From positions 2,418,001 to 2,482,000 of the forward strand of contig NZ_CP154631.1 of assembly GCF_039555755.1 (NCBI RefSeq): DNA of 64,000 nt, in the 5' to 3' direction. The notes under the pieces are model-generated. The model was not told where the DNA came from, searched no databases, and was given only the letters and a program-made list of their open reading frames with translations. Numbering within the stretch: position 1 is the first letter of the stretch; every line of letters starts with the position of its first letter. The position numbers and the translations under genes were made by a program. This DNA comes from Pseudomonas sediminis (GTDB taxonomy: Bacteria > Pseudomonadota > Gammaproteobacteria > Pseudomonadales > Pseudomonadaceae). Shown one piece after another: positions 14,364 to 38,598 of the stretch.

Positions 14364-14525
14364 TGTGATGATCATCCGGCACCAGCACCTCCTGTGTGGG
14401 GGAGTTAGGCTGCTTTGCTGACGATCTTCTGCCTTGATGTATCCCATAAACGACAATGCCCCCATCGACCGATGGAGGCATTGTCTCTGGCTTGGATACA
14501 GACTACTCGGTTTTTACACAGTCTG
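14364..14525 (-). mobile_element. relic of an IS1182-type insertion sequence (transposase 5' end and terminal repeat)
   Basis: These 162 bases align with the terminal part of the intact IS at 36975-38570 (its 38420-38570 portion). Shared stretches include GCTGCTTTGCTGACGA, CCCATAAACGACAATGCC and the closing ACACAGTCTG. On the minus strand the first roughly 30 transposase codons can be followed, reading MGYI, then RQQSSL, then with a shifted frame PTQEVLVPDDH against PTLEELVPEDH in the intact copy. The subterminal hairpin (14452-14485) is preserved. The rest of the transposase and the opposite terminal repeat are absent. The sequence divergence indicates an old insertion of a related element, not a copy of the present one. 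Confidence 0.85.
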
Positions 14526-35546: not shown

Positions 35547-35720
35547 AGAGCACGGCTCTTGTCGACTGAAGTTGCCGCGCAGTATAGCGAGCGGTCTGGG
35601 GCGGGCAAAGCGCATGGCTGCCCGGATCGACGGGAAACTGGGTAGAATGTGCGCCTTTTAGTCGGTCGGTGGCCAATTCGCCGCTTGCCTGCCTCAATCG
35701 TTTGCCTTGGAGGGTGCGTC

Positions 35721-36935
35721 TTGCGCGAAATCGTCCTGATCAATATCACTGGCGAAGATCGCCCCGGACTCACCGCTGCCATCACCGGGGTGCTGGCTCA
35801 AGGCGGGGTGAATATCCTCGATATCGGTCAGGCGGTGATCCACGACACCCTGTCGTTCGGCATCCTTATCGAAATTCCTGACAACGGCCGCTCCCAGTCA
35901 GTGCTCAAGGACTTGCTGTTCACTGCCTACGAGCTCGACCAACAGGTGCGTTTCACTCCGGTTTCCGAAGACGACTACCGTCAGTGGGTTGGTGGCCAGG
36001 GCAAGGCGCGCCATATCGTGACTCTGCTGACGCGCAAGGTCAGCGCCGAGCAGTTGCAGCGCGTCAGTGCGATCACCGCCAAGTACGGCCTGAACATCGA
36101 TCATATCGACCGTCTTTCCGGGCGTATGCCGCTGGACATGCCGGCCGAGCAGGGCAAGGGCTGCATCGAGTTTTCCGTGCGTGGCGAGCCGGCCGATCCA
36201 GTTGCCCTGCGCGCTGAGTTCCTCAGCGTGGCGCAGGAACTCAACGTCGACATCGCCTTCCAGCGCGACTCGGTGTTCCGTCGCAATCGTCGCCTCGCCG
36301 TGTTCGACATGGACTCGACGCTGATTGAGGCCGAGGTCATCGACGAGTTGGCCAAGGCTGCCGGCGTGGGTGAGCAGGTGGCCGAAATCACCGAGCGCGC
36401 CATGCGCGGCGAGCTGGATTTCCGCGCCAGCTTCAAGGAGCGCCTGGGCTTGCTGCAGGGGCTGTCGGAGGACGTGCTGGAGGAGATCGGCGCGTCCCTG
36501 CGCCTGACCGAGGGTGCCGAGGTGTTGTTCGCCGAACTCAAACGCCTGGGCTACAAGACTGCGATTCTCTCCGGCGGCTTCACTTACTTCGCCAAGCAAC
36601 TGCAGGCCAAGCTGGGCATCGACTACGTGTTCGCCAACGAACTGCAGATCGAGAACGGCAAGGTCACCGGCGTGGCTGTCGAGCCCATCGTCGATGCGCA
36701 GCGCAAGGCCGATCTGCTGCGTGAGTTGGCGCATAAGGAAGGTTTGCAGCTGGAGCAGACCATCGCTGTCGGCGATGGCGCCAATGACCTGCCGATGCTC
36801 GGTCTGGCCGGTCTCGGCGTGGCTTTCCGCGCCAAGCCGTTGGTCAAACAATCGGCCAAGCAGGCGATCTCCACCCTTGGGCTGGACGGCATTCTTTATC
36901 TGCTGGGCTTCCGTGATCGTGAGGGGCAGGAATAA
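35721..36935 (+). CDS. serB: phosphoserine phosphatase
   Basis: A 404-residue enzyme with two N-terminal ACT-type regulatory domains (INITGEDRPGLTAAITGVL; IVTLLTRKVSAEQLQRVS) and a C-terminal HAD phosphatase. The catalytic motif is AVFDMDSTLI, with AILSGGFTYFA and VGDGANDLPML. It makes L-serine from phosphoserine in the last step of serine synthesis. The start is TTG at 35721: GGAGGG lies six bases upstream, and homologues begin with the REIVLIN segment. Its terminator downstream has been split by the IS. Confidence 0.95.
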   Translation: MREIVLINITGEDRPGLTAAITGVLAQGGVNILDIGQAVIHDTLSFGILIEIPDNGRSQSVLKDLLFTAYELDQQVRFTPVSEDDYRQWVGGQGKARHIVTLLTRKVSAEQLQRVSAITAKYGLNIDHIDRLSGRMPLDMPAEQGKGCIEFSVRGEPADPVALRAEFLSVAQELNVDIAFQRDSVFRRNRRLAVFDMDSTLIEAEVIDELAKAAGVGEQVAEITERAMRGELDFRASFKERLGLLQGLSEDVLEEIGASLRLTEGAEVLFAELKRLGYKTAILSGGFTYFAKQLQAKLGIDYVFANELQIENGKVTGVAVEPIVDAQRKADLLRELAHKEGLQLEQTIAVGDGANDLPMLGLAGLGVAFRAKPLVKQSAKQAISTLGLDGILYLLGFRDREGQE

Positions 36936-36958
36936 GCCCCAGTGTTGCGTCGGATATG

Positions 36959-36974
36959 AAAAAGCCGCCTGAGC
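36959..36974. terminator. left arm and loop copy of the serB/fimX terminator, split by the IS
   Basis: AAAAAGCCGCCT (36959-36970) is followed by GAGC (36971-36974), which is the left copy of the 4-bp target duplication. The matching arm AGGCGGCTTTTT is at 38575-38586. Without the IS they form a perfect 12-bp stem with a GAGC loop between two convergent genes. Confidence 0.88.
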
Positions 36975-37009
36975 CAGAGCGTGTGAAAACGCACTGACGC
37001 CAGAAAAAT

Positions 37010-37045
37010 CCAACGCCCCGACTGGTTCGGGGCGTTGGTGTTTTT
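37010..37045. terminator. intrinsic terminator inside the IS, downstream of the transposase gene
   Basis: CAACGCCCCGA-CTGGT-TCGGGGCGTTG: an 11-bp stem followed by GTGTTTTT on the plus strand and by an A/T-rich ATTTTT on the minus strand. It would stop transposase transcripts and also serB readthrough. Confidence 0.8.
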
Positions 37046-37070
37046 GATGCTTGGAAATGGAAGGCGGGAT

Positions 37071-38510
37071 TTACCCCAACAGCTCGATCAGCCGACGGGC
37101 ACCCATCACATTGATGGCACGCTTCAGGTTGTAGGCGTTGACCGCCAGGGCCATTTCCGTCCGAGCGCCCTGCAGTTGTCGGAGCAGGAAGCGACCATTA
37201 CCCAAAATCCATTGCTTCAGGTTGCCGAAGGGATGTTCGACGATGGATCGGCGCCTGACCATCATCTCTGGATGCGCCTGCATCCGCTGATGCATGCGCT
37301 CGAATGCGGCCTCATGGACATGCCGAGTCACGTGTCGACGTTTAGCCTTGGTGCAGCGTGATTTCAATGGACAAGCCGTGCAGTCGCCGCGTAGAGCATA
37401 AATGCGCTGTAGGCCGTTTACCTGCTTGAGCGGTAACCATTGGCCTGCAGGGCATTGGTACTGGTCGTTTTCTGCGTCGTAGCTGAAGGCGCTGCGATCG
37501 AATAGCGGCGTGTCGTCGCCCTTGTTATTTATGCCCCGATTCTCCGGCACATAGGCCGTAATCCCAGCATCATCACACGCTTGAAACTGCTCACCATTGG
37601 AGTAGCCGGCATCGGCTGTAACCGTCAGCTCTTCCTGCGCCAGGATCGCCTGGGCAGCCTTGGCCATAGGTTCCAGTTGTTGGTTATCGCTGCCATCCTG
37701 AGTGACAGCATGATGCACGATCAGCCCATGCTCGCCATCCACCGCGTTTTGCACGTTATAAGCCACGCGAGCCCCCTGGTGGGTACGCATCATGCGCGCC
37801 TCGCTCTCACCCACGACGAACTGCTCCAGCCCCTGTACCTCCATCAACGCCTGGGCTGTCAGGTTATCGGCATGTCGGCTCTCCAGCTGCTGCAGCGCAG
37901 CCTTGACCGCACTGCGATCAACCACTTCAGCGGCCTCACTGCGGTCAGCCTCGTCCAGTTCGGCCAGATAACGGGCGATCTGCGCCTCCAGCTTGCCTTG
38001 TTGACGCTTGAGCTTCGTCAGGCTCAGATGCTTGCGTTGCGACGCTACCGCCTGAAACTTGCTGCCATCGATGGCCACGAGTTGCCCGCTGATCAGCCCC
38101 ACCTGGCGACAGAACCGGACGAAGGTGCGGCAGGTCGCCTGAAAAGCAGCGCTGTTGTCCTTGCGAAAATCAGCAATGGTCTTGAAATCCGGTGCCAATC
38201 GGCCCAGCAGCCACATCACCTCGACATTGCGTTGGCACTCAGCTTCCAGGCGCCGGGAGGAGCGGATGCGCTGGAAGTAACCGTACAGATAAAGCTTGAG
38301 TAGATCCGCTGGATCATAGCCAGGACGTCCAGTCTTGAGTGGTTCGGCCTTGCTGAAACCCAGAGCCTGCAGATCCAGGCGGGCGACATAGGCCTCGATC
38401 ACCCGTACCAGGTGATCCTCCGGCACCAGCTCCTCCAATGTGGGAGGAAACAGGCTGCTTTGCTGACGACCTTCGCCCTGGATGTAGCCCATAAACGACA
38501 ATGCCCCCAT
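37071..38510 (-). CDS. IS1182-family DDE transposase
   Basis: A 479-residue transposase. The N-terminal domain has FPPTLEELVPEDHLVRVIEAYV and GRPGYDPADLLKLYLYGYFQRIRSSRRLE; the DDE core includes LVAIDGSKFQAVAS, TVTADAGYSNGEQF and, at the end, RRRSIVEHPFGNLKQWI with the Glu. A zinc-like CTACPLKSRCT cluster precedes it. The reading frame is intact. Its first ATG (38510) is within a hairpin stem; a second candidate start is ATG 38492 (MGYIQGEG). Confidence 0.94.
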   Translation of the reverse strand: MGALSFMGYIQGEGRQQSSLFPPTLEELVPEDHLVRVIEAYVARLDLQALGFSKAEPLKTGRPGYDPADLLKLYLYGYFQRIRSSRRLEAECQRNVEVMWLLGRLAPDFKTIADFRKDNSAAFQATCRTFVRFCRQVGLISGQLVAIDGSKFQAVASQRKHLSLTKLKRQQGKLEAQIARYLAELDEADRSEAAEVVDRSAVKAALQQLESRHADNLTAQALMEVQGLEQFVVGESEARMMRTHQGARVAYNVQNAVDGEHGLIVHHAVTQDGSDNQQLEPMAKAAQAILAQEELTVTADAGYSNGEQFQACDDAGITAYVPENRGINNKGDDTPLFDRSAFSYDAENDQYQCPAGQWLPLKQVNGLQRIYALRGDCTACPLKSRCTKAKRRHVTRHVHEAAFERMHQRMQAHPEMMVRRRSIVEHPFGNLKQWILGNGRFLLRQLQGARTEMALAVNAYNLKRAINVMGARRLIELLG

Positions 38511-38530
38511 CGACTGATGGAGGCATTGTC
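38497..38530 (-). promoter_or_regulatory. hairpin occluding the transposase start
   Basis: Arms GACAATGCCCCCAT (38497-38510) and ATGGAGGCATTGTC (38517-38530) pair with one mismatch around a 6-nt loop. In a transcript entering from outside, the transposase AUG and the G-run before the second AUG lie in the 3' arm. A matching hairpin exists in the relic at 14452-14485. Confidence 0.75.
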
Positions 38531-38570
38531 TTCAGCTTGCTCTCAGACTGCTAGGTTTTCACACAGTCTG

Positions 38571-38586
38571 GAGCAGGCGGCTTTTT
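38571..38586. terminator. right loop copy and arm of the split serB/fimX terminator
   Basis: GAGC (38571-38574) is the right target duplication, followed by AGGCGGCTTTTT. The partner arm is 1.6 kb away, beyond the IS, so fimX transcripts arriving from the right no longer meet a compact hairpin here. Confidence 0.88.
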
Positions 38587-38598
38587 CGTCGGCGGGAT

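What the first reader, a model, noticed from the sequence alone, without database searches (positions are those of the whole stretch)
36959..38586. Intact IS inserted exactly in the loop of the serB/fimX terminator, duplicating the loop
AAAAAGCCGCCT + GAGC stands left of the IS and GAGC + AGGCGGCTTTTT right of it. Removing the IS and one GAGC restores a perfect 12-bp stem with a GAGC tetraloop between two convergent genes. The 4-bp target duplication is therefore the hairpin loop itself. This suggests the transposase recognises an extruded or single-stranded hairpin tip, not a sequence. Insertion in a bidirectional terminator is also a safe harbour.
Basis: partly seen in the sequence, partly recalled or inferred. 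Interest (0 to 1): 0.75.

Follow-up and report, generated by a model that had tools for sequence, protein, structure and literature searches.

The report
Mobile element that splits gene terminators
A Pseudomonas jumping element inserts mostly into the tip of short, symmetrical stop-transcription signals between genes and copies the tip's few letters each time; the evidence suggests that it mainly reads a symmetrical sequence pattern there, helped by but not strictly needing the folded hairpin.

Summary
An intact 1,596-bp IS1182-family element (36975-38570) splits the serB/fimX terminator, with GAGC, the loop, on both sides and 13 paired arm bases. It is the rule: 87 of 106 distinct duplication-bearing copies from the genus have at least 6 of 7 core pairs around the duplication. 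At four plasmid sites, IS-free sister plasmids carry the terminator with one copy of the duplicated bases.

The proposed mechanism is half right. The target is not 'any hairpin tip, not a sequence': 61 of 70 IS-bearing strong hairpins have an A/T tract 5-7 bp from the loop, against 61 of 513 strong hairpins in host DNA. A symmetric motif (A-tract, about 6 bp, C^N4-6^G, about 6 bp, T-tract) predicts sites far better than pairing does. Pairing adds information in five genomes (p=0.0003) but none in a held-out genome (p=0.83), where 9 of 28 targets lack a hairpin. Distant relatives use another dyad motif with almost no covariation.

Best reading: a transposase dimer recognises two half-sites found in short bidirectional terminators; their spacing sets the duplication length. 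The IS also carries its own terminator-like hairpin. New variant of known IS1182 palindrome targeting.

The parts
36958..36970 (+). left arm of the split terminator (GAAAAAGCCGCCT), beside the 3' end of the serB-type gene
36971..36974 (+). left copy of the 4-bp duplication GAGC (the terminator loop)
36975..38570 (-). intact IS1182-family insertion sequence, 1,596 bp
36975..36990 (+). left terminal inverted repeat CAGAGCGTGTGAAAAC
38555..38570 (-). right terminal inverted repeat, CAGACTGTGTGAAAAC read on the minus strand
37071..38510 (-). transposase, 479 aa (DUF772 and DDE_Tnp_1 domains; IS1182 family)
37010..37038 (.). the element's own bidirectional terminator-like hairpin, between its left end and the transposase stop codon
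   Evidence: both strands; related GC hairpin in the 14 copies printed, imperfect in some
38571..38574 (+). right copy of the 4-bp duplication GAGC
38575..38587 (+). right arm of the split terminator (AGGCGGCTTTTTC), beside the 3' end of the converging gene
35649..36935 (+). left neighbour: SerB-type ACT+HAD phosphatase (ORF as listed; true start may lie further in)

Best explanation
This is an IS1182-family element of a Pseudomonas clade that targets short, symmetrical, bidirectional intrinsic terminators. SHOWN from sequence: insertions centre on the dyad of AAA(A)-N5-6-C^N4-6^G-N5-6-(T)TTT; the bases between the two cuts, usually exactly the loop, are duplicated; both arms are kept; duplications are 4, 5 or 6 bp and each cut keeps its distance to its own A/T tract. 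INFERRED: a transposase dimer in the strand-transfer complex contacts two inverted half-sites on duplex DNA (C at the cut edge, A/T tract about one helical turn from the dyad centre), so the spacing of the half-sites sets the stagger. Self-complementarity of the GC core helps in several host genomes but is not strictly required. The element's own long-stem terminator-like hairpin probably restores insulation between the neighbours, and its geometry lies outside the preferred target.
For: Motif: A at -8 in 25/28 and T at +8 in 28/28 held-out sites, C at -1 in 24/28, G at +1 in 25/28. The motif adds far more to pairing than the reverse (chi2 231 against 5.5 over six genomes). Core length 5-7 bp in 61/70 IS hairpins against 61/513 strong hairpins and 61/177 terminator-like hairpins in host DNA. 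Of 14 sites with at most 4 of 7 core pairs, T at +10 is 14/14, A at -8 71%, C at -1 86%. At 5-bp duplications A at -8 and T at +8 hold in 18/21 and 18/21, at 6-bp in 5/5 and 5/5. The 42-47% relatives duplicate 4 bp at the centre of a different dyad whose degenerate positions 5, 7 and 9 do not covary. Empty sites on sister plasmids.
Against: Pairing adds significantly to the motif in five genomes other than G986 (chi2 13.1, p=0.0003), and strongly if the motif is reduced to tracts and edge bases (chi2 64.5 over six genomes), although that reduced motif ignores the GC richness of the core. In group B one position (6) covaries (z 2.7). One of the 14 'unpaired' sites, L035, has a perfect 14-bp stem displaced by 2 nt. 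At 6-bp duplications C at -1 holds in only 2/5. P. khavaziana copies give 5-6 bp at 4-nt loops, so the stagger is partly a property of the element. Natural terminators carry motif and hairpin together, so separation rests on few sites. No biochemistry.
Confidence: 0.58

Rival explanations
1. Structure-directed insertion: the terminator extrudes as a cruciform and each IS 3' end is joined to the 5' edge of the loop on one strand, duplicating the loop (the 'pathway c' drawn as a possibility by Wan et al. 2017 for IS1272). A/T tracts matter because they ease extrusion.
For: Duplication equals loop in 46 of 55 hairpins with 4-5-nt loops, reached by 295 of 100,000 within-subtype shuffles; both edges exactly at the loop in 44 of 71; pairing adds to the motif in five genomes; folding energy median -13.1 against -4.3 kcal/mol for local controls.
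Against: 9 of 28 held-out sites have at most 4 of 7 core pairs, and pairing adds nothing there. Longer, stabler GC stems are avoided: core of 8 bp or more in 8 of 70 IS hairpins against 107 of 177 tract-bearing hairpins in host DNA. Loops of 6 nt or more mostly gave 4-bp duplications in the first set (5 of 5), though L304 in G986 gave 6 for 6.
Confidence: 0.28
2. Transcription-coupled targeting: the transposase meets stalled or terminating RNA polymerase, or the melted DNA behind it, at terminators.
For: Terminator enrichment; 49 convergent against 10 divergent sites.
Against: Base-exact dyad symmetry and symmetric tract distance; sites without a usable terminator hairpin still keep the tracts; terminators with longer cores are avoided.
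Confidence: 0.08
3. No target preference: insertions are random and only those at harmless gene ends survive.
For: By a codon-composition heuristic the median distance to the nearest coding edge is 35 and 42 nt, so most sites are intergenic.
Against: Base-exact centring (44 of 71); local shifts within the same flanks show such hairpins in under 1%; one terminator hit by two elements 78.75% identical to each other with the same duplication.
Confidence: 0.03

Closest known systems
IS1272 and TnSha1 (IS1182 family, staphylococci; Wan et al. 2017 PMC5678879 and Furi et al. 2016 PMC4923244, passages read)
   Same: Same family; targets are hairpins, several confirmed there as terminators; no primary consensus reported; repeated hits of one hairpin.
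   Different: They report no duplication and loss of part or all of the target hairpin. Here both arms are kept and the loop is duplicated; a symmetric sequence motif is found; some targets have no hairpin.
ISPpu20 (IS1182-like element on pWW53, named in the annotation seen)
   Same: About 70% identical in DNA over the whole element; sits in a terminator with a 5-bp loop duplication and a verbatim empty site in pCAR1.2.
   Different: Different subtype; no target rule for it was seen in the papers searched.
ISPsy8 and other REP-targeting elements (IS3 and IS110 families; PMC1525189, passages read)
   Same: ISPsy8 duplicates 3 bp at the symmetry axis of a REP hairpin.
   Different: Other families; bound to one repeat sequence per host.
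IS1397 (IS3 family; mentioned in PMC1525189; loop insertion recalled)
   Same: Inserts into palindromic units.
   Different: Other family, specific for one repeat family.

Membership tests
IS1182 family | transposase matches the curated family model | tested here: met
   NF033551, 429.7 bits, cutoff 270
IS1182 family | DDE-type transposase domains in one ORF | tested here: met
   DUF772, DDE_Tnp_1 and DDE_Tnp_1_6 in a single 479-aa ORF; catalytic residues were not mapped
IS1182 family | terminal inverted repeats | tested here: met
   16 bp, 14 identical
IS1182 family | some members target palindromes (Siguier et al. 2015, seen only as cited) | tested here: met
   87 of 106 sites with at least 6 of 7 core pairs
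IS1272-type inverted-repeat replacement | no target duplication; target hairpin removed | tested here: not met
   duplication in 106 of 117 copies with both flanks; both arms kept; empty sites on sister plasmids
Structure-only (hairpin-tip) targeting | hairpins are used whatever their sequence | tested here: not met
   0 of 70 IS-bearing strong hairpins lack an A/T tract within 15 bp, against 336 of 513 in host DNA
Duplex dyad (half-site) targeting | half-sites suffice and pairing adds nothing | tested here: inconclusive
   holds in G986 (p=0.83), not in five other genomes (p=0.0003)
REP-targeting elements | copies lie in REP repeats | tested here: not met
   by eye only L132, L141 and L167 of G237 lie in a REP-like repeat

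The most novel reading that the evidence does not exclude
A DDE transposase whose cut stagger is set by the target: two half-sites are read separately and whatever lies between them (4, 5 or 6 bp) becomes the duplication. The element has become adapted to bidirectional terminators as safe harbours, bringing a replacement terminator whose long GC core makes it a poor target for further copies.
Probability: 0.45. Interest if true: 0.75.

Novelty: new variant of a known kind. Interest (0 to 1): 0.6.

Why it matters
Targeting by IS1182-family elements has been described as hairpin targeting without a sequence rule. This set gives a base-resolution rule (half-sites, spacing, variable stagger), a held-out test, true empty sites, and two related subgroups with different dyad motifs, so that hairpin reading and duplex reading can be told apart by a simple assay. 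It also suggests how such an element can reach at least 35 copies in one genome while lying mostly between genes.

Tried and rejected
Pure hairpin-tip recognition: rejected. Pure sequence recognition with no role for pairing: not accepted, because of the five other genomes. Fixed 4-bp stagger: rejected (79 of 4 bp, 21 of 5, 5 of 6, 1 of 3 among 106). Stagger set wholly by the loop: weakened by the P. khavaziana copies.

An IS-free serB/fimX site of the same species was not found: G064 carries a different small element there. Among 30 orthologous serB ends looked at, terminator-like hairpins between serB and the fimX-type gene were read by eye in L173, L188 and L200, with other loops; in G012 (L172) the hairpin looks broken.

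Rows dropped before counting: one search took 81 full-length copies, dropped 2 without a right flank and 3 duplicates (76 left, 71 with a duplication of 3 or more); one search dropped 9 duplicates and kept 42, one of them (L269) without a right flank. Copies cut by contig ends and partial copies were never counted. Genome searches scored only some candidates per genome (2, 40), so copy numbers are lower bounds. The motif tests use duplications of 4 or more only. Of 11 copies with both flanks and no duplication, 7 re-pair with each other into clean duplications (5 in G986, 2 in G237), L262 differs by one base, and L056, L058 and L149 stay unexplained.

Literature: full-text searches listed no paper that I recognised, from titles and starts of abstracts, as describing loop duplication by an IS1182-family element in Pseudomonas. 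Only open-licence papers are held; ISfinder and TnPedia could not be searched; PMC7190074 is not held. Papers seen as passages: PMC5678879, PMC4923244, PMC3281130, PMC1525189.

Full report
WHAT IS THERE. The reported arrangement is exact. The element spans 36975-38570, has imperfect 16-bp terminal repeats, one transposase ORF on the minus strand, and matches the IS1182-family model far above its cutoff. GAGC flanks it directly on both sides. With the IS and one GAGC left out, the outer arms form 13 perfect pairs around GAGC. The two neighbouring genes converge on the site.

IS IT GENERAL. The genome holds nine full-length copies of at least 98.8% identity and five of a 74% relative. Eight of the nine have a perfect stem of 5-14 pairs around the duplication; the ninth, L008, has an imperfect, bulged stem and a 3-bp duplication. 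Extending to the genus and to named contigs gave 118 distinct full-length copies, 117 with both flanks and 106 with a duplication of 3 or more: 79 of 4 bp, 21 of 5, 5 of 6, 1 of 3. In the first 71 of these, a stem of 5 or more lies within 2 nt of the duplication in 61, against 2.8% of random host positions; 8 or more in 56, against 0.097%. Local shifts and folding energy agree (median -13.1 against -4.3 kcal/mol). Exchanging right arms among sites destroys the pairing: stems of 6 or more flush with the duplication number 44 observed, 1.7 on average and 7 at most in 5,000 shuffles.

TRUE EMPTY SITES. Close relatives of the element sit on Pseudomonas plasmids. At four distinct sites, IS-free sister plasmids carry the terminator with one copy of the duplicated bases: AGTGA (pRBL16, pPABL048), AATT (pF051), TACC (an unnamed P. 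mosselii plasmid) and ATTAA (pCAR1.2). At three sites the predicted empty site is found letter for letter; the AATT site has small differences downstream. The ATTAA terminator carries two elements only 78.75% identical to each other, in pWW53 and in pPHE24, with the same duplication, most simply two independent insertions.

WHAT SETS THE CUT. Among hairpins with loops of 4 or 5 nt the duplication equals the loop in 46 of 55 (44 of 52 if 3-nt loops are allowed). Shuffling lengths within IS subtypes reaches that in 295 (468) of 100,000. In the window's own IS group it is 11 of 11, while two 6-nt loops in that group gave 4 bp. It is not the whole story: P. khavaziana copies give 5-6 bp at 4-nt loops, and L022 and L024, two subtypes in what looks like the same hairpin in two genomes, gave ACTAG and CTAG. 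Seen from the half-sites it is simpler: at 5-bp and 6-bp sites A at -8 and T at +8 still hold (18/21 and 18/21; 5/5 and 5/5), so each cut keeps its distance to its own tract. At 6-bp sites the C at -1 is found in 2 of 5 only.

HAIRPIN OR SEQUENCE. Three tests bear on this. First, in 1.66 Mb from six host genomes there are 513 hairpins with a stem of 8 or more and a loop of 3-9. An A/T tract 5-7 bp from the loop is found in 61; 336 have none within 15 bp. Of the 70 IS sites that pass the same filter, 61 are of the 5-7 class and none lacks a tract; among tract-bearing hairpins alone it is 61/70 against 61/177, p=1.9e-14. Selection removes insertions inside genes, so the second comparison is the fairer one. 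Second, G986 was found after the half-site idea had formed. It has 35 listed copies, 34 with both flanks, 28 usable. With a motif trained on 77 other sites, adding pairing gives chi2 0.0 (p=0.88), adding folding energy 3.0 (p=0.084, in the direction of weaker folding), adding the motif to pairing 115. Nine of 28 sites have at most 4 of 7 core pairs; T at +8 is 28/28 and A at -8 25/28. Third, leaving one genome out at a time over six genomes (71 sites), the motif dominates (chi2 231); pairing adds modestly overall (p=0.019), clearly in the five genomes other than G986 (43 sites, chi2 13.1, p=0.0003) and not in G986 (p=0.83). With a motif reduced to tracts and edge bases, pairing adds much more (chi2 64.5), but that motif ignores the GC richness of the core. 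An earlier, smaller test gave p=0.029 for pairing. I conclude that the half-site motif is the main determinant and pairing an aid whose weight differs between elements or hosts.

THE WIDER FAMILY. Ten relatives at about 49-68% protein identity lie outside the counted set. Loop-type duplications were read by eye in six: L059 (TTACC, bulged stem), L072 (AACCT), L073 (ATGA), L076 (TTCG), L088 (AAGA) and L105, an Acidobacteriales genome (CTTACC, 6 bp). L077, L104 and L236 show none, and one end of L071 was not located. A more distant set (up to 48.5% identity, both ends located) differs: 36 of 46 distinct copies have an exact 4-bp duplication, most often GGCC (15) or GGTC (9), at the centre of a dyad with conserved G, C, G at -10, -8, -6 and C, G, C at +6, +8, +10. 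There, degenerate positions do not covary (paired against shuffled: 0.31 and 0.39 at position 5, 0.31 and 0.30 at 7, 0.39 and 0.32 at 9); position 6 does to some extent (z 2.7). This is what duplex half-site recognition predicts, and there the duplication is not the loop.

MECHANISM. Shown: target anatomy, duplication of the bases between the cuts, variable stagger that follows half-site spacing. Inferred: a transposase dimer in the strand-transfer complex docks on two inverted half-sites about one helical turn from the dyad centre and cuts at the C edge of each; the A/T tracts could act through bending or minor-groove shape. Cruciform extrusion remains possible as an aid.

HOST SIDE. Of 113 sites classified by a codon-composition heuristic, 49 are convergent, 54 tandem and 10 divergent; 3 were unclear. 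The IS carries a bidirectional terminator-like hairpin at 37010-37038; a related GC hairpin, imperfect in some, appears in the 14 copies printed. Its centre scores 1.7 on the target motif, the best place anywhere in the IS 7.6, the window's own site 19.6 and the median site 21.6, so the element is a poor target for itself. That this hairpin terminates transcription, or is there for that reason, is inference.

REARRANGEMENTS. Copies without a duplication in G986 and G237 give clean duplications when their flanks are exchanged: L284 with L299; L291, L293 and L294 in a ring; L132 with L141. Recombination between IS copies explains 7 of the 11.

NOVELTY. IS1182-family palindrome targeting is known for IS1272 as loss of hairpin sequence without duplication (PMC5678879, PMC4923244; passages read). 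The loop-duplicating mode was drawn there as one possible pathway. What is added here is that this mode is the norm in a Pseudomonas clade, the half-site rule, and evidence that the hairpin is not strictly needed. I found no paper on it in the searches listed under Tried and rejected, which cover open-licence papers only.

Noticed in passing
window 14369-14525 (L016): A solo right-end remnant of a related IS (85% identical over 158 bases); AATT and then GCGGGCTTTTT follow its end, so it too seems to have sat in a terminator.
   Followed up: partly
L221 (G064, same species): The orthologous serB terminator in a same-species genome is split by another small element of about 170 bp with TGAATAGGC on both sides (by eye).
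   Followed up: partly
L284, L291, L293, L294, L299 (G986); L132, L141 (G237): Flanks have been exchanged between IS copies, a trace of recombination between copies.
   Followed up: yes
L132, L141, L167 (G237): Copies lie in what looks like a REP-type repeat (gatcgcagccttcggcagctcctgcag, by eye), not in a terminator.
   Followed up: no
L004 and L005 (G000:C1:671600-673195 and 250825-252420): Two of the nine full-length copies carry an in-frame TAG in the transposase gene.
   Followed up: no
L080-L099 and L224-L261, flanks of 42-47% relatives: Their targets share a degenerate dyad (about GTCCGCTTTGGGTCGATAGCGGAC) in many genera; it may be a widespread intergenic repeat of its own.
   Followed up: partly
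L104 (Acidobacteriales): A relative without a duplication sits between arms of an 18-bp inverted repeat (by eye), which may resemble the IS1272 mode.
   Followed up: no
L045, L046, L049, L050: Both ends of IS relatives lie close together with the middle missing, possible internally deleted, MITE-like derivatives.
   Followed up: no
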